Below are positions 797 to 40,167 of a stretch of 64,000 bases of DNA, piece by piece (the first letter of the stretch is position 1; each line of letters opens with the position of its first letter). A program made the translations under genes and the position numbers. Source of the DNA: Burkholderia sp. BCC0506 (lineage in GTDB: Bacteria > Pseudomonadota > Gammaproteobacteria > Burkholderiales > Burkholderiaceae); assembly GCF_902833145.1 (NCBI RefSeq), contig NZ_CADFEN010000010.1, forward strand, positions 62,001-126,000, given 5' to 3'. The notes beneath the pieces were generated by a model. It had not been told where the DNA came from, searched no databases, and worked only from the letters and a program-made list of their open reading frames with translations.

Positions 797-1690
797 ATGG
801 TCAAGACAACGATGAGCGGCGCACCTGAGCCGGCGGCGTCCGGCGACGAAGAATCGTCGGGCGGCGCTTCGTCCTATCTGGTGCCGGGGCTCGAACGCGG
901 GCTGCGGATCCTTGCCGAATTCTCCGCGCGCGAGCCCGTGCTCGGCGCGCCCGAGCTGTCGAAGCGCATCGGCATTCCGCGCACGACCACGTTCCGCCTG
1001 CTGCAGACGCTCGAGGCGCTCGGTTTTCTCGAACGCGTGAACGGCGACCGCTATTTCCGGCTCGGCGTCGGCGTGCTGCGGCTCGGCTTCGAATACCTGA
1101 ATTCACTGGAACTGACCGATCTCGGCACGCCCGTGCTCGAACGGCTGCGCGATTCGACTGGGCTGTCGACGCACCTGCTGATCCGCGACCAGCGTGACGT
1201 GGTGTTCGTCGCGAAGGCGCAGAGCAATGCATCGATGTTCGGTTCGGTGAAGGTGCACGTCGGCACGCGCCTGCCCGCGCATGCGACCGTGCATGGCCAT
1301 GTGCTGATGGGCGACCTGACGCGCGATGCGATGCGGCAGCTCTATCCGGAGAAGAAACTCGAACCGTTCACCGAGCGCACGCCCGGCACCGTCGACGAGC
1401 TGTACGACCGCGTGCGGCATTACGCGCGGCTCGGCTACGCGGTCAGCGAGGCGGCGTTCGAGAGCGGCATTTCGGCCGTGACCGCGCCCGTGCGCGATCA
1501 TTCGGGCTCGATCGTCGCGGCGATCACCGCAACGGTGCCGCGCTCGGAGATCGGCGAGGCCGGCGAGAAGGAACGGCTCGTCGAGGCCGTGTGCGGCGCG
1601 GCGGTCGACCTGTCGCAACGGCTGAACTATCGTCCGCTCGAAAGCGATCCGACGTTCGCGCATGCGCGCCACAAGGTCGCGATGTTCTGA
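797..1690 (+). CDS. IclR-family transcriptional regulator (copy 1)
   Basis: This is a DNA-binding regulator of 297 residues, or 292 if ATG 812 is used. The N-terminal winged helix-turn-helix (about residues 28-90) is followed by the IclR effector-binding domain, with the typical HGHVLMGDL and SAVTAPVRD segments. It is a close paralogue of the regulator at 7338-8195: the 55 residues from SYLVPG to GFLER differ at only five positions, while the effector domains diverge more. It lies next to the porin and the Rieske operon, whose promoters carry matching palindromes, so it is a good candidate regulator of both. Its inducer is unknown. The start is uncertain because no strong ribosome-binding site precedes either ATG. 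Confidence 0.9.
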   Translation: MVKTTMSGAPEPAASGDEESSGGASSYLVPGLERGLRILAEFSAREPVLGAPELSKRIGIPRTTTFRLLQTLEALGFLERVNGDRYFRLGVGVLRLGFEYLNSLELTDLGTPVLERLRDSTGLSTHLLIRDQRDVVFVAKAQSNASMFGSVKVHVGTRLPAHATVHGHVLMGDLTRDAMRQLYPEKKLEPFTERTPGTVDELYDRVRHYARLGYAVSEAAFESGISAVTAPVRDHSGSIVAAITATVPRSEIGEAGEKERLVEAVCGAAVDLSQRLNYRPLESDPTFAHARHKVAMF

Positions 1691-1748
1691 TCCGTCGAAC
1701 GAGCCGCGTCGCGCGGCTTCGCCGAGCGCCGACAGCAGTCGTCCATGA

Positions 1749-1785
1749 GGAAAGAGCAGCCCCGGGGCTGCTCTTTTCGTTTCGG
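1749..1785. terminator. Bidirectional terminator between IclR and porin genes
   Basis: An uninterrupted palindrome, AAAGAGCAGCCCC followed by GGGGCTGCTCTTTT, lies between two convergent genes. It has T residues on the plus side and A residues on the left side, so it can end transcription from both the IclR gene and the porin gene. Confidence 0.85.
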
Positions 1786-1812
1786 CATCGCGGCTGCCGC
1801 GCCCGCCGGCGG

Positions 1813-2892
1813 TCAGAACGAGTGGTGAATGCCGGTCAGCACGATCACCTGGTTCGCGGTGCTCGACACGCCGGCCGTGAAGAACGCGGCCTTCGCTCCG
1901 CCCGAACCGTGTTCGTACAGCACGTTCGCATACAACTGCGTGCGCTTGGACAACGCGTAGATGTCGCCGAGCTCGACCTGCGTCCAGCGGCGGCCGGCCA
2001 GCGTCGTGGTCGCCGCGCCGCCCGCGATCGTGTTGAACGCGCTGCTGCGGTAGTTCACGCCTGCGTCGTAGCTCTGGAACGTGTCGGAAAACCCGTTCGA
2101 CTGCATCTTCACGCGCGTGTAGAGGCCGTGCACGAGGAAGTCGCCGATCTGGTACGACGCGCCCGCGCCGATGTTCTCGACCTTGCTGGCGAGATAACCG
2201 TTCGCGGTGTTCTGCCCCTGGAACGACGCGATGCCCGTCTGGCCGATCAGGATCGCGCGGTCGTGCTCGTTCGAGTAGACGGCCGACGCCTTGAACGGCC
2301 CGTTCGCGTAGTTCAGCGCGACGCCGACCGATTTGCCAGTCGAGAAGTTCGTCGTGTTGCCGAGCGCGAGCGTCGCCGCGGCCGAGAAGCCCGCGAAGCT
2401 CGGCGAACGGTACTTGATCGAATTGTTGTACGGCACGTTGCCGGTCGCGGCGAGCCCGTCGATGTTGCCGGGGTGGAACGCAAACCAGCTCAGCGCGAGG
2501 TACGCGGTGCTGAGCGGATCGAGATAGTCGAACGTCAACGGCGTCTGGCGGCCGAGCGTCAGCGTGCCGTAGCGCTCGGCGCTGAGGCCGACGTACGCCG
2601 CGCGGTTCCATATCGTGTTCGCGGTCGCGAACTGGCCGTTGTTCGTATAGAAGCCGTTTTCCAGCTGGAAGATCGCCGACAGCCCGTCGCCGAGGTCTTC
2701 CTTGCCTTTCAGGCCCCACCGGTCGGGCTGCGTATTGCCCTGGATCATCGCCCACTTCGCATGGCCGCCGACGTTGTTCACATACGCGACACCCGCATCC
2801 ATGCTGCCGTACAGCACCACGCTGCTCTGCGCCCACGCGCCCGACGCGGCGCCGATTCCGATGACTGCCGCTGCTACCGCATGCTTGACCAT
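1813..2892 (-). CDS. Outer-membrane porin, Gram-negative (betaproteobacterial OmpC-like) family
   Basis: This is a trimeric-type general porin of 359 residues. A signal peptide ends near AWA/QSS (about residue 22), and the mature protein begins SSVVLYGSMDAGVAYVNN, the usual first strand of Burkholderia porins. The rest is rich in alternating beta-strands and ends in the C-terminal Phe (GIHHSF) needed for outer-membrane assembly. AGGAG precedes the start. It is divergent from the Rieske oxygenase operon and has the same operator type in its promoter. It therefore probably admits the aromatic substrate into the periplasm, working with the MFS carrier at 15293-16693. Substrate specificity cannot be read from the sequence. 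Confidence 0.95.
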   Translation of the reverse strand: MVKHAVAAAVIGIGAASGAWAQSSVVLYGSMDAGVAYVNNVGGHAKWAMIQGNTQPDRWGLKGKEDLGDGLSAIFQLENGFYTNNGQFATANTIWNRAAYVGLSAERYGTLTLGRQTPLTFDYLDPLSTAYLALSWFAFHPGNIDGLAATGNVPYNNSIKYRSPSFAGFSAAATLALGNTTNFSTGKSVGVALNYANGPFKASAVYSNEHDRAILIGQTGIASFQGQNTANGYLASKVENIGAGASYQIGDFLVHGLYTRVKMQSNGFSDTFQSYDAGVNYRSSAFNTIAGGAATTTLAGRRWTQVELGDIYALSKRTQLYANVLYEHGSGGAKAAFFTAGVSSTANQVIVLTGIHHSF

Positions 2893-2990
2893 TTGATCTC
2901 CTGACTCTCCAACCTGATGAAAACGTGTTGTGACGGCCTGCGCGGGGACGGCCGGCCGTCGCGCATGGTCATCGCCGAGTGGGCTTTCTT

Positions 2991-3010
2991 ATGTTCCATA
3001 TAAGGAACAT
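2991..3010. promoter_or_regulatory. Putative IclR operator, porin side
   Basis: This is a perfect inverted repeat, ATGTTCC-N6-GGAACAT. On the minus strand a likely promoter is TTGTCC (3057-3052), 16 bases, then TATACT (3035-3030), placing transcription start near 3023. The palindrome would then cover roughly +13 to +32 of the porin transcript, a position suited to repression. The sequence type fits known IclR operators; the binding protein is inferred. Confidence 0.7.
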
Positions 3011-3253
3011 CATGCCTTTGATGGAATGGAGTATAGAGGCGTCATGCGCGCGGACAAAAATAAATTTTTCGGGACGGATGGGCGCCGTCGTGAGACCCGG
3101 CGGCACGGCTTGATGTCTTGAAAAAGCCGATAAACCCTCGCAATAAAACAAAAAATTACATTCGATAAGGTAGGCGAGGGGGATGGCGGATCTGTGCGTC
3201 GGTGTTTTCCCTAGGACATGCAGCTTTTTATTTTGATCGCGGAACGTCGCTCC

Positions 3254-3259
3254 TATAAT
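3254..3259 (+). promoter_or_regulatory. -10 box of the Rieske operon promoter
   Basis: A perfect TATAAT lies 78 bases before the ferredoxin start. The best -35 candidate is a weak TTTTGA at 3231-3236 with 17-base spacing, as expected for a promoter that is weak or needs activation. Transcription would start near 3266. Confidence 0.6.
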
Positions 3260-3275
3260 CACCATCCATAAACTG

Positions 3276-3305
3276 TTGTTCCTGATATGGAACAAATCGG
3301 AACAA
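3276..3305. promoter_or_regulatory. Putative IclR operator, Rieske operon side, plus an extra half-site
   Basis: A perfect inverted repeat TTGTTCC-N6-GGAACAA lies at 3276-3295. A further GGAACAA at 3299-3305 repeats the right arm exactly ten bases on, one helical turn. The element starts 16 bases after the -10 box, so it overlaps the early transcript just as the porin-side palindrome does. It is the same 7-6-7 design with the same GTTCC/GGAAC core, which points to one regulator for both promoters. Confidence 0.7.
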
Positions 3306-3336
3306 ACCGAGTGTCGCTCAGAAGGAAGGGTGTGAG

Positions 3337-3654
3337 ATGTCTGAACAATGGATTTGCGCCGGTCACGCCGGCGCGCTGTCGGAAGACACGCCGATCGAGT
3401 TCAAGCGGACCGACGGCGTGGAAATCGGGATCTACCGCGTCGGCGACGACGTGTATGCGCTCGAGAACGTGTGCCCGCATGCGTACGCGCTGCTGACGCA
3501 GGGGTTCGTCGACGAAGGCACGGTCGAATGCCCGCTGCACGAGGCCGTGTTCGACATCAGGACGGGCGAATGCCTGAAGGGGCCGGGCGGCCGCGCGCTG
3601 AAGCAGTACGCCGTGCGCCTCGCCGGCGAGGAAATCCAGATCAAGGTGGACTGA
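3337..3654 (+). CDS. Rieske [2Fe-2S] ferredoxin of a ring-hydroxylating oxygenase
   Basis: This 105-residue electron carrier passes electrons from a flavin reductase to the oxygenase. The cluster ligands are clear: C46-P-H48 and C65-P-L-H68, the Rieske C-x-H...C-x2-H pattern of the bphF/carAc type of ferredoxin. GAAGG stands before ATG 3337. It is the first gene of the operon, with the oxygenase two genes downstream (4031). The matching GR-type reductase is far away at 14010, near the operon's end. Confidence 0.93.
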   Translation: MSEQWICAGHAGALSEDTPIEFKRTDGVEIGIYRVGDDVYALENVCPHAYALLTQGFVDEGTVECPLHEAVFDIRTGECLKGPGGRALKQYAVRLAGEEIQIKVD

Positions 3655-3655
3655 C

Positions 3656-3967
3656 ATGAAACCAGCGACCGTCAACTTCAATCCCTTCCTGAAGCCGTGG
3701 GTGGCGCCGCAGCCGAACAACGTCGCGGGCAAGGGGCAGATCGAGATTCCCGGCCAGGCCGAGAACCAGGTCTGGCAGAACCGCAAGGCCGAACCCACCC
3801 AGTACGAGAACGACCTCGGCGATGCGCTCGAACGCGTGTTCGAGCGCGGGGCGACCGAGCTGGACGATGTCGTCGCGGGCCTGAACCGCATCGGCTTTCG
3901 CGCGCCGGACGGCACCGCGTGGACCGCGGAGCGTTTTCGCGCCGAAATGGCCTCGCTGGCGGAATGA
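3656..3967 (+). CDS. Small protein with recombinase-like helix-turn-helix C-terminus
   Basis: The protein has 103 residues and starts one base after the ferredoxin stop. Residues 1-50 are polar and rich in Pro, Asn and Gln (FNPFLKPWVAPQPNNV). The C-terminus (GLNRIGFRAPDGTAWTAERF) matches the short helix-turn-helix seen in serine-recombinase-like domains. As I recall, small proteins of this kind recur beside Rieske oxygenase genes in proteobacteria. No catalytic residue is visible and the role is unknown. A structural or assembly partner of the oxygenase is as likely as DNA binding. Confidence 0.75.
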   Translation: MKPATVNFNPFLKPWVAPQPNNVAGKGQIEIPGQAENQVWQNRKAEPTQYENDLGDALERVFERGATELDDVVAGLNRIGFRAPDGTAWTAERFRAEMASLAE

Positions 3968-4030
3968 ACGCCCCGACCGCGCCGCGCGCCTGAGCGCCGG
4001 CCCGACGACAACCGCATCCGGAGCACACTG

Positions 4031-5101
4031 ATGACGTCCCCCGACCAACACGAAACCCAACACGACGCGGTTCGCGACTATCTCGACCGCGGCATCAAGA
4101 ACTACTGGTATCCCGTTGCACCGAGCTGGCAGGTGTCGAATGCACCGGTCGGCCTCACGCGCCTGTCCGAGCAGATCGTGCTGTGGCGCGATCACGACGG
4201 CAAGGTCCATGCGCTGGAAGACCGTTGCCCGCACCGCGGCGCGCGCCTGTCGCTCGGCTGGAACCTCGGCGGCAACATCGCATGCTGGTATCACGGCATC
4301 GAAGTCGACGGCGGCGGCACGGTCAACCGCGTGCCGGCCGTATCCAACTGCCCGCTCGAAGGCACGAAGTGCGTGAAGTCGTATCCGGTCGAAGAGAAGG
4401 CCGGCGCGATCTTCCTGTGGTTCGGCGACGAAGCGCACGGCGAGCCGGCGCCGCTGAACCTGCCGGAAGAACTGGTCGCCGACGAATACGCGCACTTCCT
4501 GTGCGTGTCGAACTGGAAGTGCAATTACCAGTACGCGATCGACAACGTGATGGACCCGATGCACGGCGCGTATCTGCACGCGAGCTCGCACTCGATGGCC
4601 GAAGGCGACAAGCAGGCCGAGATGCGCGTGCGCAAGACGGAAACGGGCCTGATGTTCGAGAAGATCGGCCAGCGCGACGTGAACTTCGACTGGGTCGAGC
4701 TCGGCGAAACCGGCTGCCTGTGGATGCGCCTCGCGATTCCGTACAAGCAGAAGTTCGGCCCGGGCGGGAACTTCGGGATCACCGGCTTCGCGACGCCGGT
4801 CGACGGCGACCACTGCCAGGTCTATTTCTGGCGCACCCGCAAGGTCAGCGGCTGGCAGCGCGACGTGTGGCGCTTCATGTACCGCAACCGCCTCGAAGGC
4901 CTGCACTGGGACGTGCTCGAGCAGGATCGCTACGTCCTCGAAAGCCTCGCGCCGCACGCGCGCGATCACGAATACCTGTACCAGCACGACGTCGGCATCA
5001 CGCGCGTGCGCCGGATGCTGCGCCAGCGTGCGCAGGAGCACCTGGCCGCGCTCGACGCGCACCGTGCGGCGCGCGCCGCTGCGGAGCCGACGAATGGCTG
5101 A
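4031..5101 (+). CDS. Rieske non-haem iron oxygenase, alpha subunit
   Basis: This 356-residue protein is the catalytic component of an aromatic-ring hydroxylase or O/N-demethylase. The Rieske cluster is bound by C66/H68 and C85/H88 (CPHRG ... CWYHG). The mononuclear iron site reads D171-N-V-M-D175-P-M-H178-...-H183, so the electron-bridging Asp, both His ligands and the 2-His motif are intact. No beta-subunit gene occurs in the operon, so it is probably a homotrimer, like carbazole or dicamba-type oxygenases. The substrate cannot be told from sequence. It overlaps the next gene by eight bases, indicating translational coupling. Confidence 0.93.
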   Translation: MTSPDQHETQHDAVRDYLDRGIKNYWYPVAPSWQVSNAPVGLTRLSEQIVLWRDHDGKVHALEDRCPHRGARLSLGWNLGGNIACWYHGIEVDGGGTVNRVPAVSNCPLEGTKCVKSYPVEEKAGAIFLWFGDEAHGEPAPLNLPEELVADEYAHFLCVSNWKCNYQYAIDNVMDPMHGAYLHASSHSMAEGDKQAEMRVRKTETGLMFEKIGQRDVNFDWVELGETGCLWMRLAIPYKQKFGPGGNFGITGFATPVDGDHCQVYFWRTRKVSGWQRDVWRFMYRNRLEGLHWDVLEQDRYVLESLAPHARDHEYLYQHDVGITRVRRMLRQRAQEHLAALDAHRAARAAAEPTNG

Positions 5102-5864
5102 GTTCGCTCCGGTCGTCGCGCTGCCGGGGCGCCGCGTGCTTGTCACGGGCGGCGCGCGCGGTCTCGGCGCCGCCTTCGTGAAGGCGCTGGTCGAAGCGGG
5201 CGCGCAGGTCGCGTTCGGCGACGTGCTCATCGACGAGGGCCGCGCGCTCGCCGCGCAGCTCGCGCAAGCCGGCCACACCGCGCACTTCTTCGCCCTTGAC
5301 CTCGCCGACCCGGCCAGCATCGACGCGTTCGTCGCGCAGGGCGCGGCGGTGCTCGGCGGCGTCGACGCGCTGATCAACAACGCGGCGATCACGAACTCGG
5401 GCGGCAAGCTGTCGACCGAGCTCGACGTGTCGACGTGGGACGCCGTGATGAACGTGAACGTGCGCGGCGTGTGGCTCGTCAGCAATGCGGCGCTGCCGCA
5501 CCTCGCGCAATCGGGCCGCGGCGCGATCGTGAACCTCGCATCGGACACCGCGCTGTGGGGCGCGCCGAAGCTGCTCGCGTACGTCGCGAGCAAGGGCGCG
5601 GTGATCGCGATGACGCATGCGCAGGCGCGCGAGTTCGGCGCGCACGGCGTGACGGTCAACGCGATCGCGCCGGGGCTCACCGAAGTCGAGGCGACCGCCT
5701 ACGTACCGGCCGAGCGCCATGCGTTCTACCTGCAGGGCCGTGCGCTGACGCGCGCGCAGGTGCCCGACGACGTGACGGGCCCCGTGCTGTTCCTGCTGTC
5801 GGACGGCGCGCGCTTCGTGACGGGTCAACTGCTGCCGGTCAACGGCGGCTTCGTAATGAATTGA
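5094..5864 (+). CDS. SDR-family NAD(P)-dependent oxidoreductase (operon copy 1)
   Basis: This is a 256-residue classical short-chain dehydrogenase. It has the cofactor loop TGGARGLG near residue 20, NNAA near 100, and the catalytic Y-V-A-S-K followed by a Lys-directed helix near 160-170. ATG 5094 is chosen because MAEF...VLVTGG gives the family-length N-terminus and overlaps the oxygenase stop. In this operon it could oxidise a cis-dihydrodiol or a hydroxylated intermediate formed by the Rieske oxygenase. That role is inferred from position only. Confidence 0.9.
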   Translation: MAEFAPVVALPGRRVLVTGGARGLGAAFVKALVEAGAQVAFGDVLIDEGRALAAQLAQAGHTAHFFALDLADPASIDAFVAQGAAVLGGVDALINNAAITNSGGKLSTELDVSTWDAVMNVNVRGVWLVSNAALPHLAQSGRGAIVNLASDTALWGAPKLLAYVASKGAVIAMTHAQAREFGAHGVTVNAIAPGLTEVEATAYVPAERHAFYLQGRALTRAQVPDDVTGPVLFLLSDGARFVTGQLLPVNGGFVMN

Positions 5865-5898
5865 ATCGCAGTTTTCACTCGGAATGAAGGAGAGGACG

Positions 5899-6426
5899 AT
5901 GGCGGACGCCGATCTCGAACGCAAGTCGTGGGACCAGCCGGAAGGCACGAGCTTCAACGAATGGATGGAAGGGCGCGTCGCGCGCTACGCGACGCGGCGC
6001 TACGACTGGGACGCACTGAAGTTCCAGGCCGACTACGACCCGAAGTACCGCCGTGCGCAGATGCGCTATGTCGGCACGGGCGGCACGGGCGTCGCGAAGG
6101 ACGTCAACACGGTGCCGGCCGGCAACTTCACGTTCTCGACGATGGTCATCCCGGCCGGCAACATCGGCCCGAGCCACATTCATATCGACGTCGAGGAAAT
6201 CTTCTTCGTGCTGCGCGGCAAGATGAAGGTGATCTGCGAGCGCGACGGCGAGACGTGGGAAGCGATCCTCGGCGAGCGCGACCTGATCTCGGTGCCGCCG
6301 GGCGTGTATCGCACGGAAATCAACATCGGCGAGGAAGATGCGCTGATGTGCGTGATGCTCGGTTCGCCGAAGCCGATCACGCCGACGTATCCGCCCGATT
6401 CGCCGCTCGCGAAGATCAAGCGTTGA
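5899..6426 (+). CDS. Cupin-domain protein
   Basis: This single-cupin protein has 175 residues. Motif 1 is intact (GPSHIHIDVEE: H-x-H-x3-E), so it should bind Fe, Mn or Ni. It ends in a Pro-rich tail (PITPTYPPDSP). AAGGAGAGG sits just before ATG 5899; the earlier ATG 5884 would overlap that site and is rejected. Cupins in aromatic operons can be isomerases, dioxygenases or small-molecule binding proteins. Which applies here is not clear. It lies between the first SDR and the alpha/beta hydrolase. Confidence 0.85.
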   Translation: MADADLERKSWDQPEGTSFNEWMEGRVARYATRRYDWDALKFQADYDPKYRRAQMRYVGTGGTGVAKDVNTVPAGNFTFSTMVIPAGNIGPSHIHIDVEEIFFVLRGKMKVICERDGETWEAILGERDLISVPPGVYRTEINIGEEDALMCVMLGSPKPITPTYPPDSPLAKIKR

Positions 6427-6444
6427 GACGGGGCGGGTAAAGCA

Positions 6445-7341
6445 ATGCGTGTCATCGACAAACGTGAACGCGACCGCACGGCGGCGTTCGCCGCGCTGCT
6501 CGGACAGTTTCCCGAGCAGCGTTGCGCGGCCGGCGCGGCGGGCACGATCGGCTATCGCGAGGCCGGCGCGCGGCATGCGGGGCGCACGCTGCCCGTCGTG
6601 CTGCTGCACGGGATCGGCTCGGGCGCCGCATCGTGGGTGCGCCAGCTCGACACGCTCGGCGCATCGCGGCGCGTGCTCGCGTGGGATGCGCCCGGGTACG
6701 GCGTGTCGACGCCCGTGCACGGCGCGTCGCCGGCCGCCGCCGATTACGCGGCATCGCTGAACGCGTGGCTCGAGGCACTCGGCATCGAACGCTGCGTGCT
6801 GGTCGGCCACTCGCTCGGCGCGATCATCGCGGGCGGTCTCGCCCGCGTGATGCCCGCGCGGATCGCCGGCCTGCTGCTGGTGTCGCCCGCGGGCGGCTAC
6901 GGCAGCGCACCGGCCGACACCCGCGAATCGCGCCGCGACGCGCGGCTCGCGATGCTCGCGGCACTCGGCCCGGCCGGGCTCGCCGAGCAGCGCAGCGGCA
7001 ACATGCTGTCCGGCTTCGCGAACGAGGAGGCGCGCGCGTGGGTGCGCTGGAACATGGCGCGCATCGTGCCGGCCGGCTATGCGCAGGCCACGCACCTGCT
7101 CGCGAACGCCGATCTCGCCGCCGATCTCGCCGGCTTTCGCGGCCGCACGGCCGTGGCCGTCGGCGCGAACGACGCGATCACGCCGCCCGCCGCGTGCGAG
7201 CGGATCGCCGCGGCCGCGCAGGTGGGGCTGCAGGTGATTCCGCAGGCCGGGCACGCCGGCTACGTGGAAGCGCCGGACGTGTATTCCGCATTGATCGATA
7301 CGTTCTGCCGTCAGTGCGATACGCAGTGGGGGCTGGCATGA
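6445..7341 (+). CDS. Alpha/beta hydrolase, possible meta-cleavage-product hydrolase
   Basis: The 298-residue enzyme has an oxyanion segment LLHGIGSGAASW, nucleophile Ser123 (GHSLG), Asp243 (GANDAITPP) and His270 (QAGHAGYVEAP), a complete catalytic triad. The fold class includes C-C bond hydrolases that act after extradiol ring cleavage. The operon also encodes an extradiol-type VOC protein (13051), so that role is plausible, but an esterase or amidase role is not excluded. The stop overlaps the start of the IclR gene by four bases (ATGA). Confidence 0.85.
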   Translation: MRVIDKRERDRTAAFAALLGQFPEQRCAAGAAGTIGYREAGARHAGRTLPVVLLHGIGSGAASWVRQLDTLGASRRVLAWDAPGYGVSTPVHGASPAAADYAASLNAWLEALGIERCVLVGHSLGAIIAGGLARVMPARIAGLLLVSPAGGYGSAPADTRESRRDARLAMLAALGPAGLAEQRSGNMLSGFANEEARAWVRWNMARIVPAGYAQATHLLANADLAADLAGFRGRTAVAVGANDAITPPAACERIAAAAQVGLQVIPQAGHAGYVEAPDVYSALIDTFCRQCDTQWGLA

Positions 7342-8195
7342 GCGAACCGCTGCAACGAAACGAAACCGACAACGCGAGGACCGAAGCCAGCTACGTGGTG
7401 CCGGGCCTCGAACGCGGGCTGCGGATTCTCGCCGAATTCTCGCCGCGCGAGCCCGTGCTCGGCGCGCCCGAGCTGTCGAAGCGCCTCGGCATTCCGCGCA
7501 CGACGGTGTTCCGTCTGCTGCAGACGCTCGAGTCGCTCGGCTTTCTCGAGCGCGCGGACAAGGATCGCAACTACAAACTCGGCATCGCCGTGCTGCGGCT
7601 CGGCTTCGAATACCTGAGCTCGCTGGAGCTGACCGATCTCGGCCTGCCGGTGATCGAGAGCCTGCGCGATGCGACCGGTTTCACGACGCACATCGTGATC
7701 CGCGACGGCCGCGACGTGGTGTTCGTCGCGAAGGCGCAGAGCCAGGCGCCGGTGTTCAGCTCGATCCGTGTGAACGTCGGCACACGGCTGCCCGCGCATG
7801 CGACGACGCACGGCCACGTGCTGATGGGCGACCTGTCGCTGAAGGAGCTGCACGCGCTGTATCCGGAAGGCGTGCTGAACCGGATGACGAGCGCGACGCC
7901 GGAAACGGTCGACGCACTGTACGAAGCGATCCGCGAGGATGCGCTGCGCGGCTACGGCGTCAGCAATTCGTCGTTCGAACGCGGGATCTCGGTCGTCACC
8001 GCGCCGGTGCGCAACGAGACGCAGAAGATCGTCGCGTGCATCACGGTGACGGTGCCGCGTCCGGAGATCGACGCGGCGTTGATCGCCGACGGGCTGATCG
8101 ACAAGGTGCAGCGCGCGGCGGCGGAATTGTCGCGGCGCCTCAATTACCGCTCGGATGACGAGCACACGTTCATGAAAGCTTTAGGACTCCGATGA
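7338..8195 (+). CDS. IclR-family transcriptional regulator (copy 2)
   Basis: This 285-residue IclR regulator is embedded in the catabolic operon. ATG 7338 overlaps the hydrolase stop (ATGA), and the end overlaps the following SDR start. The winged HTH is almost identical to that of copy 1 (50 of 55 positions from SY[VL]VPG to GFLER), so both should recognise the same DNA. The effector domain differs more, for example around residues 130-200. Because it is transcribed with the operon it may feed back on the 2991 and 3276 palindromes. Its position mid-operon, among catabolic genes, is unusual. Confidence 0.93.
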   Translation: MSEPLQRNETDNARTEASYVVPGLERGLRILAEFSPREPVLGAPELSKRLGIPRTTVFRLLQTLESLGFLERADKDRNYKLGIAVLRLGFEYLSSLELTDLGLPVIESLRDATGFTTHIVIRDGRDVVFVAKAQSQAPVFSSIRVNVGTRLPAHATTHGHVLMGDLSLKELHALYPEGVLNRMTSATPETVDALYEAIREDALRGYGVSNSSFERGISVVTAPVRNETQKIVACITVTVPRPEIDAALIADGLIDKVQRAAAELSRRLNYRSDDEHTFMKALGLR

Positions 8196-8981
8196 TCCAG
8201 ATCGATCTGACCGGGCAAGTGGCGGTGGTGACGGGCGGTTCATCCGGCATCGGCCTCGCGACGGCCGAGCGGTTCCTGCAGGCCGGCGCGTCGGTCGCGA
8301 TTTGCGGCCGCGACGGCGACCGTCTCGCACGCGCCGAAGCGATGCTGCGCGACAGGTACGCTGGCGCTCAATTGCTGGCCGCGCGCTGCAACGTACTCGA
8401 CGAAGGCGACGTGACGGCGTTCGCGCAAGCGGTGTCCGCGCGCTTCGGCCGTGCCGACATGCTGGTCAACAACGCCGGCCAGGGCCGCGTGTCGACCTTC
8501 GCCGATACGACCGACGACGCCTGGCGCGAAGAACTCGAACTGAAGTACTTCAGCATCATCCGCCCGACGCGCGCCTTCCTGCCGCTGCTGCGCGATGCGG
8601 CCGCGCCGACGATCACCTGCGTGAACTCGCTGCTCGCGCTGCAGCCGGAGCCGCACATGGTCGCGACGTCCTCGGCGCGCGCGGGCGTGCTGAGCCTCGT
8701 GAAGTCGCTCGCGACCGAACTGGCGCCGCAGCGCATCCGCGTGAACTCGATCCTGATCGGCATCGTCGAGTCGGGGCAATGGCGCCGCCGCTACGACACG
8801 CAGGCGCAGCCCGGCGAAAGCTGGGAAGAGTGGACGGGCGCGCTCGCCCGCAAGAAGAACATTCCGCTGAATCGCTTCGGCAAGCCCGATGAGGCCGCCT
8901 GGGCGCTTTTTTATCTCGCAACGCATCTGTCGTCCTACACGACGGGCAGCCATATCGACGTTTCTGGAGGCTTTGCACGCC

Positions 8982-8989
<8 letters not shown>
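8192..8989 (+). CDS. SDR-fold protein lacking the canonical catalytic Tyr-Lys
   Basis: The 265-residue protein has a normal SDR cofactor loop (VTGGSSGIG, residues 13-21) and NNAG near 93-96. The region that should hold Y-x-x-x-K instead reads T159-S-S-A-R163. The surrounding helix (AGVLSLVKSLATELAP) aligns well, so this looks like a true substitution and not a frame error. Known family members with this replacement are usually annotated only as SDR oxidoreductases. It may bind NAD(P) with altered chemistry, or be non-catalytic. It overlaps the genes on both sides. Confidence 0.88.
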
Positions 8990-11469
<2,480 letters not shown>

Positions 11470-11541
11470 CCGGACCCTGGAGCGTTCGCCCGCGCCACGG
11501 CGAGGGCGGGCGTGCAGAGACAGATTTGTGGGACTTGTGAC

Positions 11542-13032
11542 ATGACTCCTTTCGATACGAGCCTCGTGCCCGACGGCAACATCCTGATCGGCGGCGCGTG
11601 GCGGCGCGGCCGTGGCGCGCCTTACGCGAGCATCTATCCGGCCGACCAGTCGGTGAACATGGAAGTGTCGACGGCGAACGCGGAAGACGCGGTCGAGGCC
11701 GTCGTGGCGGCCGATGCCGCCTGGCGCCGCGCCGACTGGGCCGGGCTCAAGCCGCACCAGCGCGCGCAGCTGCTGTACCGCATCGCCGACCTGATCATGC
11801 AGCGCCACGAGGCGCTCGCGCACCTGCAGCGCCGCGACAACGGCAAGCCGATCGGCGAGACGCGCGTGCTGGTGGCCAGCGCCGCGAACACGTTCCGCTA
11901 TTTCGCGGCCTGCCTCGAAACGCTCGACGAAGAACTGACGCCGTCGCGCGGCGATTACCTGACGATGAGCGTGTACGAGCCGATCGGCGTGATCGCGGCG
12001 ATCACGCCGTGGAATTCGCCGATCGCGTCCGATGCGCAGAAGCTCGCGCCGGCACTGGCCGGCGGCAATGCGGTGGTGCTCAAGCCGGCCGAGGTCACGC
12101 CGCTCGTGTCGCTCGCGCTGGCCCGCATCTGCGAGGAAGCCGGCGTGCCGAAGGGCGTGCTGAGCGTGCTGCCGGGCAAGGGCTCGGTGATCGGCGACGT
12201 GCTCGTGCGTCACCCGCTCGTGAAGAAGGTGTCGTTTACCGGCGGCACCGAAGTGGGCCGCGGCATCGCGCGCATCGCGGCCGAGAAGCTGATGCCCGTG
12301 TCGCTCGAACTCGGCGGCAAGTCGCCGACGATCGTGTGCGACGACGCCGATCTCGATCATGCGGTGAACGGCGTGCTGTACGGCATCTTCAGTTCGTCCG
12401 GCGAAGCGTGCATCGCCGGCTCGCGCCTGTTCGTGCAGCGCGCGGTGTACGGCGCGTTCATGCAGCGCCTGGTGGCCGGCGCACGCAAGCTGCGCGTGGG
12501 CGACCCGTTGCGGCCCGACACGCAGATGGGCCCGCTGATCACCGCGAAGCATCGCGAGTCGGTCGAACGCTACGTCGCGCTCGGGCTGGAAGAAGGCGGC
12601 CGGCTGCTGTGCGGCGGCGAGCGGCCGTCGGGCGACGGGCGCGAGCATGGCTTCTTCTATCAGCCGACGATACTCGAAGGCTTGCCGAACAGCGCGCGCA
12701 TCTGCCAGGAGGAAATCTTCGGGCCGGTGCTGGTCGCGATGCCGTTCGACGACGAAGCGTCGCTGATCGCGCAGGCGAACGACAGCGTGTTCGGCCTCGC
12801 GGCCGGCATCTGGACGCGCGACTACAAGCGCGCGTGGCGCATCGCGCGAGCGCTGGAGACGGGCACCGTCTGGATCAACACGTACAAGCTGTTCTCGATC
12901 TCCACGCCGTTCTCGGGCTGGAAGGAGAGCGGGATGGGGCGCGAGAAGGGGCGTCTCGGCATCCGCGAATACATGCAGCAGAAGAGCCTCTACTGGGGCT
13001 TGAACGACGCGCCGCTGCCGTGGGCGAACTGA
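11542..13032 (+). CDS. NAD(P)-dependent aldehyde dehydrogenase
   Basis: The 496-residue aldehyde dehydrogenase is complete: Asn158 (TPWNSP), Glu256 (LELGGKSP) and the nucleophile Cys290 (SSGEACIAGSR). The length is normal. The start is not certain: GTG 11512 is in frame, has GAGGG upstream and would add ten residues. ATG 11542 gives the usual N-terminus before LIGGAW. In context it probably oxidises the aldehyde made by the thiamine enzyme or by ring-cleavage product hydrolysis. Confidence 0.93.
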   Translation: MTPFDTSLVPDGNILIGGAWRRGRGAPYASIYPADQSVNMEVSTANAEDAVEAVVAADAAWRRADWAGLKPHQRAQLLYRIADLIMQRHEALAHLQRRDNGKPIGETRVLVASAANTFRYFAACLETLDEELTPSRGDYLTMSVYEPIGVIAAITPWNSPIASDAQKLAPALAGGNAVVLKPAEVTPLVSLALARICEEAGVPKGVLSVLPGKGSVIGDVLVRHPLVKKVSFTGGTEVGRGIARIAAEKLMPVSLELGGKSPTIVCDDADLDHAVNGVLYGIFSSSGEACIAGSRLFVQRAVYGAFMQRLVAGARKLRVGDPLRPDTQMGPLITAKHRESVERYVALGLEEGGRLLCGGERPSGDGREHGFFYQPTILEGLPNSARICQEEIFGPVLVAMPFDDEASLIAQANDSVFGLAAGIWTRDYKRAWRIARALETGTVWINTYKLFSISTPFSGWKESGMGREKGRLGIREYMQQKSLYWGLNDAPLPWAN

Positions 13033-13050
13033 GCGAAGGGGAATGACGCA

Positions 13051-14013
13051 ATGAGCATCTTGGGAATCGAGCAGATCACGTACGGTGTCGACGATCTCGC
13101 GACCTGCCGGCGTTTTTTTGCCGACTGGGGGATGAAGGAAGTCGCGCACGACGACACGCGCGCCCGTTTCGAGACGATGAACGGCTGCACCGTGCTGGCC
13201 GTGAAGGCCGACGATCCGTCGCTGCCGCCCGCGTTCGAAGCGGGCCCGACGCTGCGGGAAGTCACGTGGGGCGTCGCGACGCGGGGCGAGCTCGACGCGT
13301 TGCGCACGAAGCTCGCCGGCCAGCCCGGCTATTACGCGCAGGACGATGCACTCGGCTGCATCGATCCGAACGGAATGGCGATCCGCATCGAAGTCACGCG
13401 CAAGCGCGCACTCGACATCACCGGCTCGCCGTCGAACGTGTGGGGCCAGGCGCTGCGTGTCGACCAGCCGAGCCCGATCTATGCACGCGCGGAGCCGGTC
13501 GAGGTCGGGCACGTGGTGTTCTTCACGAACTGCCTCGACGCGCAGGAAAAGTTCTATCACGAACTGCTCGGCTTCGAGACGTCGGACCGTTATCCGGGCC
13601 GCGGCGCGTTCATGCGCTGCGCGCCGCACGGCGGCCATCACGACCTGTTCCTGCTCGCGCTGCCGAACGGAAAACGCGGCCTGAACCACGTCGCGTTCAC
13701 CGTGCGCGACATCCACGAAGTGTTCGGCGGCGGCATGCACATCGACCGCTGCGGCTGGGAAACGCAACTCGGCCCGGGGCGTCATCCGGTGTCGTCCGCA
13801 TACTTCTGGTACTTCCAGAACCCGGCCGGCGGCCTGATCGAGTACTACGCGGACGAGGACGTGCTGACGCCCGAGTGGCAGCCGCGCGAATTCGAGCCGG
13901 GCCCGACCGTGTTCGCCGAATGGGCCGTCGATGGCGGCCTCGACGGCCACACGCGCCGGCAGAAGAACGCGAAGGCGCCGGAAGGCAAGTTCATGACGGA
14001 GCGCAAATCGTGA
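13051..14013 (+). CDS. Two-domain VOC protein, probable extradiol ring-cleavage dioxygenase
   Basis: The 320-residue protein has two vicinal-oxygen-chelate domains. The second carries a full set of extradiol dioxygenase residues: metal ligands His154 (VGHVVFF), His213 (LNHVAF) and Glu264 (GLIEYYAD), plus likely catalytic His197 (GGHHDLF), His245 (GPGRHPVSS) and Tyr254 (YFWYF). The layout matches the BphC type. It should open a catechol formed upstream in the pathway. The C-terminal tail (PTVFAEWAVDGGLDG) is longer than in BphC. It overlaps the reductase gene by four bases. Confidence 0.88.
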   Translation: MSILGIEQITYGVDDLATCRRFFADWGMKEVAHDDTRARFETMNGCTVLAVKADDPSLPPAFEAGPTLREVTWGVATRGELDALRTKLAGQPGYYAQDDALGCIDPNGMAIRIEVTRKRALDITGSPSNVWGQALRVDQPSPIYARAEPVEVGHVVFFTNCLDAQEKFYHELLGFETSDRYPGRGAFMRCAPHGGHHDLFLLALPNGKRGLNHVAFTVRDIHEVFGGGMHIDRCGWETQLGPGRHPVSSAYFWYFQNPAGGLIEYYADEDVLTPEWQPREFEPGPTVFAEWAVDGGLDGHTRRQKNAKAPEGKFMTERKS

Positions 14014-15254
14014 GCGAAACGAACTCGCAGGAATCGGCCGCGCCGGGCACGGTCGTCGTGATCGGCGGCGGCCAGGCCGCCGGCTGGGTGCTGAAGACGC
14101 TGCGCGCGGAAGGCTTCGCGGGCCGCCTCGTGATGATCGCCGATGAGCCGCATCTGCCGTACGAGCGCCCGCCGCTGTCGAAGGCCGTGCTGGCCGGCGA
14201 CGCCGGCATCGACACCGTGCGCGTCGTGCGCCCAGACGAATTCGACGCGCTGAACGTCGAAGCGTGGCAGCCCGAACGCGCGACGTCGATCGATCGCGCG
14301 CGCCGCGTGGTGACCACCGAAAGCGGCCGCGAGATCGCATACGACCGGCTCGTGATCGCGACCGGCGGCACGTCGCGCCGCCTGCCCGAGGCGCTCGTCA
14401 GGACCCCGAACCTGCATTACCTGCGCACGCTCGACGAAGCGGCCGCGCTCGGCGAGAAGCTGCGCGCGAGCCGGCGCGTGCTCGTGATCGGCGGCGGGTG
14501 GATCGGTCTCGAAGTCGCGGCGACCGCGCGCAAGCTCGGCGTCGACGCGGTGGTCGTCGAAGGCGCGTCGCGCCTGTGCGGCCGCTCGGTGCCGCGGATC
14601 GTGTCCGACTTCCTGCTCGACCTGCATCGCTCGAACGGTGTCGACGTGCGGACGGGCGCGGCGCTCGCGTCGCTCGACCCGCAGCCGGACGACGCGTCGA
14701 AGGTGCGCGCGACGCTCGCCGACGGCACGACGATCGACGCCGATTTCGCGGTGGCGGGCATCGGCCTCGCGCTGAACGCATCGCTCGCGAGCGACGCGGG
14801 GCTCGCGGTCGACGACGGCATCGTCGTCGACGAATACGGCGCGACGAGCGACCCGGCGATCTTCGCGTGCGGCGACGTCGCGAACCATCACAACGGCTGG
14901 CTCAAGCGCCGTGTGCGGCTCGAATCGTGGGCCAACGCGCAGAACCAGGCGATCGTGGCGGCGAAGGCCGTACTCGGCGTGCGCGCACCGTACGCGGAGA
15001 TTCCGTGGTTCTGGTCCGATCAGTACGACGTGAACCTGCAGATCCTCGGCGATCTGCCGGCCGATGCGCAGCTCGTCGTGCGCGGCGATCTCGCCGCGCG
15101 CCGCGCGACGCTGTTTTTCGTGGGCGACGGGCATGTGAGAGGTGTCGTCGCCGTGAACAACGCACGCGAGCTGAAGCTCGCGCGCAAGTGGATGAACCAG
15201 GGCCGGGCAGTGGATACGGAAGCCCTGGCAGACACGACCCAAGCGCTTGCCTGA
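14010..15254 (+). CDS. FAD-dependent ferredoxin reductase (GR-type) of the oxygenase system
   Basis: The 414-residue flavoprotein starts at GTG 14010, overlapping the VOC stop (GTGA). It has an FAD loop (VVVIGGGQAAG), the segment LPYERPPLSK typical of BphA4-type reductases, an NAD loop (VLVIGGGWIGLEVAA) near residue 157, and FACGDVAN for FAD binding near 290. It is expected to pass electrons from NADH to the Rieske ferredoxin at 3337. That it lies ten genes from the ferredoxin but in the same transcript supports one co-expressed system. Confidence 0.92.
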   Translation: MSETNSQESAAPGTVVVIGGGQAAGWVLKTLRAEGFAGRLVMIADEPHLPYERPPLSKAVLAGDAGIDTVRVVRPDEFDALNVEAWQPERATSIDRARRVVTTESGREIAYDRLVIATGGTSRRLPEALVRTPNLHYLRTLDEAAALGEKLRASRRVLVIGGGWIGLEVAATARKLGVDAVVVEGASRLCGRSVPRIVSDFLLDLHRSNGVDVRTGAALASLDPQPDDASKVRATLADGTTIDADFAVAGIGLALNASLASDAGLAVDDGIVVDEYGATSDPAIFACGDVANHHNGWLKRRVRLESWANAQNQAIVAAKAVLGVRAPYAEIPWFWSDQYDVNLQILGDLPADAQLVVRGDLAARRATLFFVGDGHVRGVVAVNNARELKLARKWMNQGRAVDTEALADTTQALA

Positions 15255-15292
15255 CCGGCCCAACCCGGAAAGAGATCCAGGAGATCCCCCGC

Positions 15293-16693
15293 ATGAGCAC
15301 TTTCGACAACGTCGTGGCCGGCAGGGCCACGATGGAAGCTGCCGCCTCCACGCCCGGCGCGATCATCGCGCGGCTCGAGCGGCTTCCGGCCAACGCGATG
15401 CAGATCCGCGCGCGCGTGCTGATCGGCACCGCGACGTTCTTCGACGGTTTCGACGTGATCACGATCGCGGCGACGCTGCCGCTGCTGATCCACAAATGGG
15501 GGCTGTCGCCGACGCAGATCGGCATGCTGATCGCGTCCGGCGCGATCGGCCAGCTGATCGGCGCATTCCTGTTTCCCGCGCTCGCGGAAAGGCACGGCCG
15601 CGTGAAGGCGATCGCATGGAGCTCGGCCGTGATCGGCATCACCAGCATCGCGTGCGGCTTCGCGCCGACGTTCGAGGTGTTCGTGCTGCTGCGGATCCTG
15701 CAGGGGCTCGGGCTCGGCGGCGAGTTGCCGGTCGCCGCGACGTACATCAACGAGATCACGCGCGCGCATGGCCGCGGCCGCTTCGTGCTGCTGTACGAGA
15801 TCGTGTTCCCGATCGGCCTGCTCGTGTCGATGGCGCTCGGCGCGTGGCTCGTGCCGCGCTTCGGCTGGGAGATCATGTACTTCGTCGGCGGGTTGCCGGT
15901 GATCCTTGCGCTGGTGCTCACGCGCTTCGTGCCCGAATCGCCGCGCTGGCTCGCATCGCGCGGACGGCTCGCGGAAGCCGGGCGCGCGGTCGGCGTGTTC
16001 GAGGAATCGGTGCGCGGCGAGCTGCCGCCGGTCACGCAGGTCGCCGCGTTCGACGAGATGGTGCGCCAGCATCCGAAGCGCAGGATGAGCGACCTGTTCA
16101 GCGCCGCGTATCGCAAGCGCACGCTCGCGGTGGCGACGTTGTGGGCGACCTGCGGGTTCATCCAGTACGGGCTGTCGACGTGGCTGCCGACGATCTACAA
16201 GAACTTCTATCACGCGCCGCTGCAGCTCGCGCTGAACCTCGCGGTGATCGGTTCGGTGATGGGCGTGCTCGGGTCGCTGGCCTCCGCGCTGCTGGTCGAC
16301 AAGCTCGGCCGCAAGCCGGTGATCGTGTGGTCGTTCGTGCTGTGCGCACTGTCGCTGGCGCTCGCCGGCATCTATCACGCGTCGTCGGTGTATGTGGTCG
16401 CGGTCTTCTGCTCGTTGTCGCTCGGGCTGATGGCGTCGGGCTTCATTACCGCGTACGTCTATACGCCGGAGCAGTATCCGACGAGCATCCGCGCGTCGGG
16501 CTGCGGGCTCGGCAGCGCGTGGCTGAAGATCGCGTCGTTCGTCGCGCCGATGGTCGTGCCGCACGCGATCATCGGCGGGAACCTCGCGCCGGCGTTCTAC
16601 CTGATCGGCGTCGTGCCGCTGATCGCGGCGCTGACCGTGCACTTCGTCGGGATCGAGACGAAAGGGAAAGTGCTGGAGGCACTGGAGGCGTAA
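15293..16693 (+). CDS. MFS transporter, aromatic acid:H+ symporter-like
   Basis: This 466-residue inner-membrane carrier has twelve predicted helices. Helix 1 contains FFDGFDVITIA, the Asp-containing motif of the aromatic acid/H+ symporter and related families, and the helix 2-3 loop holds a GRVKA-type sequence. GAGATC and neighbouring purines precede ATG 15293. It closes the catabolic operon and is followed by a strong terminator. It most likely imports the pathway's substrate after passage through the divergent porin. Confidence 0.92.
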   Translation: MSTFDNVVAGRATMEAAASTPGAIIARLERLPANAMQIRARVLIGTATFFDGFDVITIAATLPLLIHKWGLSPTQIGMLIASGAIGQLIGAFLFPALAERHGRVKAIAWSSAVIGITSIACGFAPTFEVFVLLRILQGLGLGGELPVAATYINEITRAHGRGRFVLLYEIVFPIGLLVSMALGAWLVPRFGWEIMYFVGGLPVILALVLTRFVPESPRWLASRGRLAEAGRAVGVFEESVRGELPPVTQVAAFDEMVRQHPKRRMSDLFSAAYRKRTLAVATLWATCGFIQYGLSTWLPTIYKNFYHAPLQLALNLAVIGSVMGVLGSLASALLVDKLGRKPVIVWSFVLCALSLALAGIYHASSVYVVAVFCSLSLGLMASGFITAYVYTPEQYPTSIRASGCGLGSAWLKIASFVAPMVVPHAIIGGNLAPAFYLIGVVPLIAALTVHFVGIETKGKVLEALEA

Positions 16694-17417: not shown

Positions 17418-17491
17418 GTGGCCGACTTGCCGGATTCGCGGCGCGAACGTACGCTTGATCGATACCACGATCGACCGACAGGTTATCGACC

Positions 17492-17893: not shown

Positions 17894-17956
17894 GCCGGGC
17901 GGGGCTGCCACATCCACGCCGCGATGCGTCGATCGCGACGTCGTTTCCGCGCCGCA

Positions 17957-17993
17957 TAAAAAAAGCGCCGCGGCCTTTCGGCCTGCGGCGCCT
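17957..17993 (-). terminator. Terminator of acnB
   Basis: Read on the minus strand, a GCGCCGCAGGCC/GGCCGCGGCGC hairpin is followed by seven T residues (A-tract at 17958-17964 on the plus strand). It stands about 50 bases after the acnB stop. Confidence 0.85.
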
Positions 17994-18040
17994 GTCGGGG
18001 CGCTGCGACGTCGACCACCCGCCGCAGCCCGATTGCGTGC

Positions 18041-40135: not shown

Positions 40136-40167
40136 CCGGGTGTCTCCGATCTGGCTCATTTTTGAAT

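What the first reader, a model, noticed from the sequence alone, without database searches (positions are those of the whole stretch)
1813..16693. Possibly undescribed aromatic-degradation cluster
Porin, Rieske ferredoxin, oxygenase alpha alone, reductase, extradiol-type VOC, alpha/beta hydrolase, cupin, two SDR-fold proteins, thiamine enzyme, aspartate-dehydrogenase-like protein, aldehyde dehydrogenase, MFS carrier and two IclR regulators form one unit. I do not recognise this combination as any named pathway. A route of hydroxylation, ring cleavage, C-C hydrolysis, decarboxylation and aldehyde oxidation fits the enzyme set. The substrate is unknown.
Basis: inference. Interest (0 to 1): 0.7.

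Follow-up and report, generated by a model that had tools for sequence, protein, structure and literature searches.

The report
Likely kynurenic acid degradation gene cluster
A widespread bacterial gene cluster looks like the complete machinery for eating kynurenic acid, a tryptophan breakdown product, by a route whose chemistry I recall as decades old but whose genes I could not find named in print.

Summary
It is no one-off: 64 of 67 full-length named loci carry the same ten-gene core; 213 of 398 family genomes carry its oxygenase; versions occur in Klebsiella, Acinetobacter, Novosphingobium, Paracoccus and Streptomyces. Two perfect palindromes in the divergent promoter region occur nowhere else in the 7.29 Mb genome.

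Best explanation (confidence 0.6): catabolism of kynurenate via 7,8-dihydroxykynurenate. The recalled order (Rieske dioxygenation, diol dehydrogenation, extradiol cleavage to a 2-oxo acid, reduction, decarboxylation, aldehyde oxidation) matches RHO, SDR1, VOC, SDR2, ThDP enzyme and ALDH one to one. I infer that cupin and hydrolase then open the pyridine ring, giving 2-oxoglutarate and iminosuccinate, the aspartate dehydrogenase's substrate; the balance closes. Variants add RidA, a hydroxynicotinate-hydroxylase-like enzyme, or a Mo-hydroxylase. No tryptophan dioxygenase or kynureninase gene adjoins any locus, and no enzyme has been tested. Eight kynurenate literature searches showed no gene assignment in their listings.

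The parts
797..1690 (+). IclR-family regulator A (PcaR/PobR-like)
   Evidence: Pfam IclR_C + HTH_IclR; TIGR02431 below cut-off; 79% DNA identity to regulator B over 682 bases
1813..2892 (-). outer-membrane porin, divergent
   Evidence: Pfam Porin_4 6e-48; palindrome about 100 bases upstream of its start
2992..3009 (.). palindrome TGTTCC-N6-GGAACA, putative IclR operator (porin side)
   Evidence: with the next site the only two places in 7.29 Mb
3277..3294 (.). palindrome TGTTCC-N6-GGAACA, putative IclR operator, 42 bases before the ferredoxin gene
   Evidence: an exact copy of the pattern somewhere in 49 of 80 named loci
3337..3654 (+). Rieske [2Fe-2S] ferredoxin
   Evidence: Pfam Rieske 1.9e-18; motif CxH-x17-CxxH
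3656..3967 (+). HTH_62 small protein, beside the oxygenase gene; role unknown
   Evidence: PF20552 4.6e-30; only match in the genome; present in 77 of 80 loci
4031..5101 (+). ring-hydroxylating oxygenase alpha; proposed kynurenate 7,8-dioxygenase
   Evidence: Rieske + VanA_C; closest solved structure dicamba O-demethylase; CPH..CWYH and DPMHGAYLH motifs
5094..5864 (+). SDR1, classical; proposed cis-dihydrodiol dehydrogenase
   Evidence: adh_short; Y-x3-K in 96 of 96 aligned rows, 95 distinct sequences once the own-genome copy is dropped, window included
5899..6426 (+). cupin; proposed ring-opening dioxygenase of the dihydroxypicolinate
   Evidence: Cupin_2; HxH-x4-E with Arg in place of the last His; best sequence and fold hits are Ni-quercetinase (weak)
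6445..7341 (+). alpha/beta hydrolase; proposed hydrolase of the ring-opened amide
   Evidence: Abhydrolase_6; GHSLG nucleophile motif
7338..8195 (+). IclR-family regulator B
   Evidence: Pfam IclR_C + HTH_IclR
8192..8989 (+). SDR2, non-classical; proposed C=C reductase of the ring-cleavage product
   Evidence: NF005468 481 bits, cut-off 266; no Y-x3-K in any of 92 aligned rows (91 distinct sequences); best structure 3lf1
8982..10649 (+). thiamine-diphosphate enzyme; proposed 2-oxo acid decarboxylase
   Evidence: three TPP domains; NF005470 974 bits, cut-off 495; Glu and GDG-x-N motifs
10642..11469 (+). L-aspartate dehydrogenase; proposed iminosuccinate/aspartate step
   Evidence: Asp_DH_C + NAD_binding_3; NF009826 572 bits, cut-off 479; NVH aligned to NIH of 2dc1
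11542..13032 (+). aldehyde dehydrogenase
   Evidence: Aldedh 5e-172
13051..14013 (+). VOC/type I extradiol dioxygenase; proposed 7,8-dihydroxykynurenate 8,8a-dioxygenase
   Evidence: Glyoxalase domain, HpaD and catechol 2,3-dioxygenase matches below cut-offs; H154, H213, E264 invariant in 7 of 7 and 16 of 16; fold hits 2 to 50 are extradiol dioxygenases, hit 1 is an uncharacterised 'glyoxalase', 3b59
14010..15254 (+). FAD ferredoxin reductase of the dioxygenase
   Evidence: Pyr_redox_2 + Reductase_C; HcaD/AndAa-like, below cut-offs
15293..16693 (+). MFS carrier, aromatic acid/H+ symporter type
   Evidence: TIGR00895 227 bits, below its cut-off of 419

Best explanation
The unit is a substrate-induced catabolic operon for kynurenate (4-hydroxyquinoline-2-carboxylate) or a very close 4-oxoquinoline-2-carboxylate. 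Inferred flow: porin and MFS take it up. Dioxygenase (alpha + ferredoxin + reductase) makes the 7,8-dihydrodiol; SDR1 oxidises it to 7,8-dihydroxykynurenate; VOC cleaves C8-C8a to a 2-oxo acid on a dihydroxypicolinate. SDR2 reduces the side-chain double bond, the ThDP enzyme decarboxylates, ALDH oxidises the aldehyde, giving 5-(2-carboxyethyl)-4,6-dihydroxypicolinate. Newly proposed end: the cupin oxidatively opens the pyridine ring, the alpha/beta hydrolase splits the amide into 2-oxoglutarate and iminosuccinate, and aspartate dehydrogenase turns the latter into aspartate (RidA hydrolyses it in some variants). IclR proteins control both promoters through the palindromes. Shown: gene content, conservation, intact motifs, palindrome uniqueness, element balance. 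Inferred: every substrate and reaction, and the regulation.
For: Family calls for all 16 genes. No hydratase/aldolase is among the 16 genes; instead there is a ThDP enzyme plus ALDH, the signature of the kynurenate route (recalled), which needs a 2-oxo acid next to the ring. Step-by-step element balance closes and the N-bearing C4 fragment is iminosuccinate, the aspartate dehydrogenase substrate. The ten-gene core recurs in 64 of 67 full-length named loci and in a Streptomyces. Nitrogen-related additions: RidA beside the second oxygenase type in 9 genomes, a FAD monooxygenase in 5 loci, a Mo-hydroxylase in 5 genomes. The FAD monooxygenase's best solved relative is 6-hydroxynicotinate 3-monooxygenase, followed by tropone 2-monooxygenase. 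In a 29.6-kb Vibrio stretch no oxygenase, HTH_62 or separate SDR1 match is found and the FAD monooxygenase lies beside the rest, as expected if it makes the same catechol from a phenol such as xanthurenate. The palindrome links that monooxygenase to the pathway in L014 (exact) and in L172, L173 (one mismatch). All 213 oxygenase-positive family genomes also encode tryptophan 2,3-dioxygenase; a protocatechuate dioxygenase control gives 201 of 213.
Against: No tryptophan 2,3-dioxygenase or kynureninase gene lies in any of 177 loci except the one fetched for it; kynurenine formamidase and aminotransferase were not searched. The tryptophan 2,3-dioxygenase link is weak: 17 of the 20 listed genomes lacking it are under 3 Mb (81 more not listed), and Klebsiella and Acinetobacter, which carry the cluster, are not known to me to make kynurenine. 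SDR2 lacks the catalytic Tyr/Lys in 92 of 92 rows, so its reductase role is a guess. The cupin lacks the last metal-binding His, and its fold matches are weak and mixed with isomerases. In Paracoccus, Nitratireductor, Pseudosulfitobacter, Vibrio and Streptomyces the VOC matches are only 28-34% and mostly partial, and in the first three the cupin is a longer protein at 31-32%, so those steps may differ. The Mo-hydroxylase's best solved relative is 4-hydroxybenzoyl-CoA reductase, with azaarene-type enzymes second and fourth. The chemistry of the route is recalled; I read no primary paper on it (not held).
Confidence: 0.6

Rival explanations
1. Same chemistry, but the physiological substrate is another quinoline carboxylate: xanthurenate, quinaldate or a related plant or microbial 4-quinolone acid, with kynurenate an intermediate or side substrate.
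For: Funnel enzymes differ between lineages: FAD monooxygenase in 5 loci, Mo-hydroxylase in 5 genomes; Vibrio stretch without a detectable Rieske oxygenase.
Against: The window version has neither funnel enzyme among its 16 genes and starts with a dioxygenase plus a diol dehydrogenase, as expected for an unhydroxylated benzo ring bearing the 4-oxo-2-carboxylate.
Confidence: 0.17
2. Meta-cleavage pathway for a nitrogen-free or simple aromatic acid; the aspartate dehydrogenase only recycles nitrogen or feeds NAD synthesis.
For: The front end resembles ordinary three-component dioxygenases (AndAa/AndAb/HcaD-like scores) and extradiol enzymes.
Against: No 2-hydroxypentadienoate hydratase, aldolase or acylating aldehyde dehydrogenase among the 16 genes; aspartate dehydrogenase recurs in 72 of 80 loci and in Klebsiella, Acinetobacter, Novosphingobium, Paracoccus, Vibrio and Streptomyces; RidA and hydroxynicotinate-hydroxylase-like partners.
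Confidence: 0.15
3. Degradation of a different N-aromatic whose cleavage also leaves an amino-C4 unit, by reactions not in any textbook.
For: SDR2 and the cupin are catalytically unusual, so their steps could differ from those assigned.
Against: The ordered match of six enzyme classes to a recalled route would then be coincidence.
Confidence: 0.08

Closest known systems
Kynurenate ('quinoline') branch of bacterial tryptophan catabolism, studied with Pseudomonas extracts (Hayaishi and co-workers, 1960s; recalled; one title, Horibata 1961, seen in the reference list of PMC11354673)
   Same: Recalled order of enzyme classes: dioxygenation, diol dehydrogenation, extradiol cleavage, reduction, 2-oxo acid decarboxylation, aldehyde oxidation; glutamic acid synthesis is named in that title.
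   Different: Genes were not, to my knowledge, assigned; here a cupin, a hydrolase, an aspartate dehydrogenase and an HTH_62 protein are added, and substrate use is untested.
Anthranilate dioxygenase AndAaAbAcAd and phenylpropionate dioxygenase HcaEFCD
   Same: Separate Rieske ferredoxin and FAD reductase of the same families.
   Different: The matches are below the equivalog cut-offs; the alpha subunit is of the VanA_C type and no beta subunit gene is among the 16.
Dicamba O-demethylase / carbazole 1,9a-dioxygenase type oxygenases (alpha only)
   Same: Among the best solved relatives of the oxygenase; alpha-only architecture.
   Different: Followed here by a classical diol dehydrogenase, which O-demethylases do not need.
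Classical meta-cleavage pathways (HpaD, XylE, BphC routes)
   Same: Extradiol enzyme with His-His-Glu and an alpha/beta hydrolase.
   Different: No hydratase, aldolase or acylating dehydrogenase; a ThDP enzyme and aspartate dehydrogenase instead.

Membership tests
Kynurenate 7,8-dihydroxy pathway | Enzyme classes for all recalled steps encoded together | tested here: met
Kynurenate 7,8-dihydroxy pathway | Element balance compatible with an aspartate dehydrogenase step | tested here: met
   (the last two steps are my proposal; a hydrolytic ending giving glutarate balances too)
Kynurenate 7,8-dihydroxy pathway | Genetic linkage to kynurenine genes | tested here: not met
   no TDO or kynureninase match in 176 of 177 loci, the other being the locus fetched for TDO; many loci are short; not a strict requirement, since kynurenate can be taken up
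Kynurenate 7,8-dihydroxy pathway | Co-occurrence with tryptophan 2,3-dioxygenase in the family | tested here: inconclusive
Kynurenate 7,8-dihydroxy pathway | Conversion of kynurenate by the enzymes | not testable with these tools
   needs growth test and enzyme assay
Rieske ring-hydroxylating oxygenase | CxH..CxxH cluster motif and D-x2-H-x4-H iron site | tested here: met
Type I extradiol dioxygenase | Two His and one Glu iron ligands, extradiol fold | tested here: met
   model has low confidence from residue 220 on
L-aspartate dehydrogenase | Curated equivalog score and conserved His | tested here: met
   (that this His is catalytic is recalled)
Classical SDR (SDR2) | Catalytic Y-x3-K | tested here: not met
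   0 of 92 rows, 91 distinct sequences
Cupin dioxygenase (quercetinase type) | Three His and one Glu metal ligands | tested here: not met
   last His is Arg in 19 of 19; works-like claim only
Classical meta-cleavage operon | Hydratase, aldolase and acylating aldehyde dehydrogenase | tested here: not met
   none among the 16 genes

The most novel reading that the evidence does not exclude
This is the long-missing complete gene set for aerobic kynurenate and xanthurenate mineralisation, with three new enzyme activities: a cupin that oxidatively opens 5-(2-carboxyethyl)-4,6-dihydroxypicolinate, an alpha/beta hydrolase that splits N-(2-oxoglutaryl)aminofumarate, and a non-classical SDR that reduces the ring-cleavage product. 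Nitrogen is recovered directly as aspartate, and HTH_62 is a new small partner of a Rieske oxygenase rather than a DNA-binding protein.
Probability: 0.33. Interest if true: 0.75.

Novelty: new variant of a known kind. Interest (0 to 1): 0.6.

Why it matters
Kynurenic and xanthurenic acids are signalling tryptophan products. If the assignment holds, it gives genes to enzyme steps that I recall as lacking sequences for sixty years. It would show which soil, plant-associated and clinical bacteria (Klebsiella and Acinetobacter records carry the set) can remove these compounds, and replace generic annotations ('aspartate dehydrogenase', 'thiamine pyrophosphate-binding protein', 'recombinase-like helix-turn-helix') with testable functions in hundreds of genomes (at least 577 relatives of the oxygenase).

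Tried and rejected
Anthranilate, indole-acetate, flavonoid, phthalate and cumate pathways were considered from memory and dropped: none that I recall combines a ThDP decarboxylase with aspartate dehydrogenase. No tryptophan dioxygenase or kynureninase neighbours were found. A structural argument for the cupin was weak: mean pLDDT 69.7, TM 0.39 to the best hit. The VOC model has low confidence from residue 220 on, so no pocket analysis was made. A Pseudomonas aeruginosa version (PA3504-PA3511) is recalled; the only tool hint is structure 3lf1, Q9HYA2, and a paper search for those locus tags found nothing. A first paper search on the enzyme set found nothing. The tryptophan 2,3-dioxygenase association was kept but given little weight after the control. 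Palindrome counts cover whole loci; matches with two mismatches are probably chance.


Full report
WHAT IS THERE. The window lies in a 7.29 Mb genome; the best named matches of its oxygenase are Burkholderia. From 797 to 16693 it encodes sixteen intact, tightly packed genes, fourteen of them in one direction from the ferredoxin gene to the MFS gene, with six overlaps of 4 to 8 bases. Two things were missed: a 103-aa HTH_62 protein at 3656-3967 (the only member in the genome), and two palindromes TGTTCC-N6-GGAACA at 2992-3009 and 3277-3294. With one mismatch allowed, 0.02 matches are expected in the window by shuffling and two, both exact, are found. The exact pattern occurs at just these two places in the whole genome, with no match for the reversed control pattern. 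One copy sits about 100 bases before the porin start, the other 42 bases before the ferredoxin start, so porin and operon probably share one IclR-type control. The two IclR genes are 79% identical in DNA over 682 bases.

CONSERVATION. Gene order around them is nearly constant. Among the 67 loci of at least 20.9 kb, 64 hold all ten core genes (oxygenase, HTH_62, SDR1, cupin, hydrolase, SDR2, ThDP enzyme, aspartate dehydrogenase, ALDH, VOC); the three exceptions are L076, L089 and L092, and in L092 the missing genes may lie past the end of the stretch. Of all 80, aspartate dehydrogenase is found in 72, the other core genes in 71 to 80; FdR (62) and MFS (4) are often cut off by locus ends. The oxygenase is present in 213 of 398 genomes of the family, 12 of 300 of the order and 1 of 274 of the class (the own genome, at a stricter limit). 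Annotated records, checked by tblastn, show the ten-gene core in Caballeronia, Klebsiella aerogenes and K. pneumoniae (some genes there are split or not listed in the table), Acinetobacter baumannii and Novosphingobium. It is also in a Streptomyces, another phylum, where VOC matches at only 30% over 168 residues. Paracoccus, Nitratireductor and Pseudosulfitobacter have it with divergent VOC (28-33%) and a longer, divergent cupin (31-32%); their HTH_62 is by annotation only. The electron supply is swapped freely: ferredoxin plus FAD reductase; a VanB-type reductase (23 of 177 loci); or, in the three records, a FAD oxidoreductase next to a flavodoxin. An exact palindrome occurs in 49 of 80 named loci, one mismatch in 15 more, two in 9, none in 7 (whole loci counted).

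WHAT IT DOES. The chemistry below is recalled, not read; [quoted passage not shown] In that route kynurenate is dioxygenated at C7-C8, the diol is dehydrogenated, the catechol is cleaved between C8 and C8a to a picolinate carrying a 3-carboxy-3-oxopropenyl chain, the chain is reduced, the 2-oxo acid is decarboxylated and the aldehyde is oxidised. The cluster has one enzyme class for each step: Rieske system, classical SDR1 (Y-x3-K in 96 of 96 aligned rows), VOC with invariant H154, H213 and E264 and an extradiol fold (low model confidence from residue 220 on), SDR2, ThDP enzyme, ALDH. Ordinary meta-cleavage operons use a hydratase and aldolase instead; none is among the sixteen genes.

THE END OF THE ROUTE is my proposal. 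The dihydroxypicolinate has nine carbons. If the cupin oxygenates the C4-C5 bond and the hydrolase cuts the resulting amide, the products are 2-oxoglutarate and iminosuccinate, and all steps balance. Iminosuccinate is what aspartate dehydrogenase interconverts with aspartate. This explains why that gene recurs in the set, and why an imine-deaminase family protein (RidA) accompanies the second oxygenase type in nine genomes. A purely hydrolytic ending, giving glutarate, also balances. The cupin's best sequence and fold hits are Ni-quercetinase, and third in the fold list is 5-nitrosalicylate 1,2-dioxygenase. The scores are weak, isomerases are interspersed, and its last metal-binding His is Arg in 19 of 19.

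NITROGEN CLUES. A FAD monooxygenase occurs in five loci; its nearest solved relative is 6-hydroxynicotinate 3-monooxygenase, then tropone 2-monooxygenase. In Caballeronia M1242 an exact palindrome lies between this gene and the operon of the second oxygenase type, and single-mismatch copies lie between the porin gene and the SDR1 operon. In the 29.6-kb Vibrio nigripulchritudo stretch neither the oxygenase nor HTH_62 nor a separate SDR1 is found, and the monooxygenase lies beside the remaining genes, in two frames; the rest of that genome was not searched. The simplest reading is that it makes the same catechol from a phenol such as xanthurenate. On Caballeronia plasmid pNK84 a second cluster carries, after oxygenase, ThDP and VOC genes, a three-subunit Mo-hydroxylase; its large subunit recurs in four more genomes at 63-66%. 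Its nearest solved relative is 4-hydroxybenzoyl-CoA reductase, with 6-hydroxypseudooxynicotine dehydrogenase second and quinoline 2-oxidoreductase fourth, so a quinaldate-hydroxylase role is only a guess.

RESULTS AGAINST. No tryptophan 2,3-dioxygenase or kynureninase gene lies in any of the other 176 loci, many of them short; formamidase and aminotransferase genes were not sought. In the own genome that pair is on the same contig, about 150 kb beyond the window. All 213 oxygenase-positive genomes of the family have tryptophan 2,3-dioxygenase, 84 have it without the oxygenase and 101 have neither; a control gene gave 201 of 213. This is weak support, because 17 of the 20 listed genomes lacking both are under 3 Mb (81 are not listed). 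SDR2 lacks Y-x3-K in 92 of 92 rows, so it is not a normal alcohol dehydrogenase, but C=C reduction is unproven.

LITERATURE. Eight searches bearing on kynurenate degradation, seen as listings and in part capped (25 of 417, 15 of 1,118, 12 of 19), plus passages of PMC11354673 and PMC5897657, showed no gene assignment. Two further searches, on the enzyme set and on P. aeruginosa locus tags, returned nothing. The library lacks most subscription and older papers, so an existing assignment cannot be excluded.

VERDICT. A real, widely conserved catabolic unit, probably for kynurenate or a near relative, with a directly testable enzyme order. The chemistry is probably old; the gene assignment and the ending are what would be new.

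Noticed in passing
window 3656-3967; L010, L011, L012, L102 (adjacent); L097, L099, L100 (three ABC-transporter genes apart): HTH_62 ('recombinase-like') genes accompany the Rieske oxygenase gene in these versions of the cluster across two phyla; a partner of the oxygenase looks likelier than a DNA-binding role.
   Followed up: partly
window 8192-8989: SDR2 has T/S-S-x-A-R where classical SDRs have Y-x3-K, in 92 of 92 aligned rows; a solved structure, 3lf1, exists for a close relative.
   Followed up: partly
L097, L099, L100: Three alphaproteobacterial versions carry a flavodoxin-domain protein next to the FAD oxidoreductase, perhaps a flavodoxin-fed Rieske oxygenase.
   Followed up: no
L098 19241-20325: The Vibrio nigripulchritudo FAD monooxygenase match is split over two frames; either a frameshift or a sequence error.
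   Followed up: no
L013 and L105 (Caballeronia NK8 pNK84): One plasmid carries two related clusters with the same ferredoxin and HTH_62 accessions and near-identical VOC proteins, the second with a Mo-hydroxylase and an SRPBCC protein.
   Followed up: partly
CP125156.1 (L103): A 5.37 Mb Klebsiella pneumoniae record labelled plasmid carries metK, speA and tkt and is evidently a chromosome.
   Followed up: no
window 38552-40159: Flavin-binding monooxygenase-like gene elsewhere in the window; not studied.
   Followed up: no
window 16866-20626: Downstream neighbours are a GNAT acetyltransferase, a PCC-domain protein and aconitase B, so the cluster appears to end with the MFS gene.
   Followed up: yes
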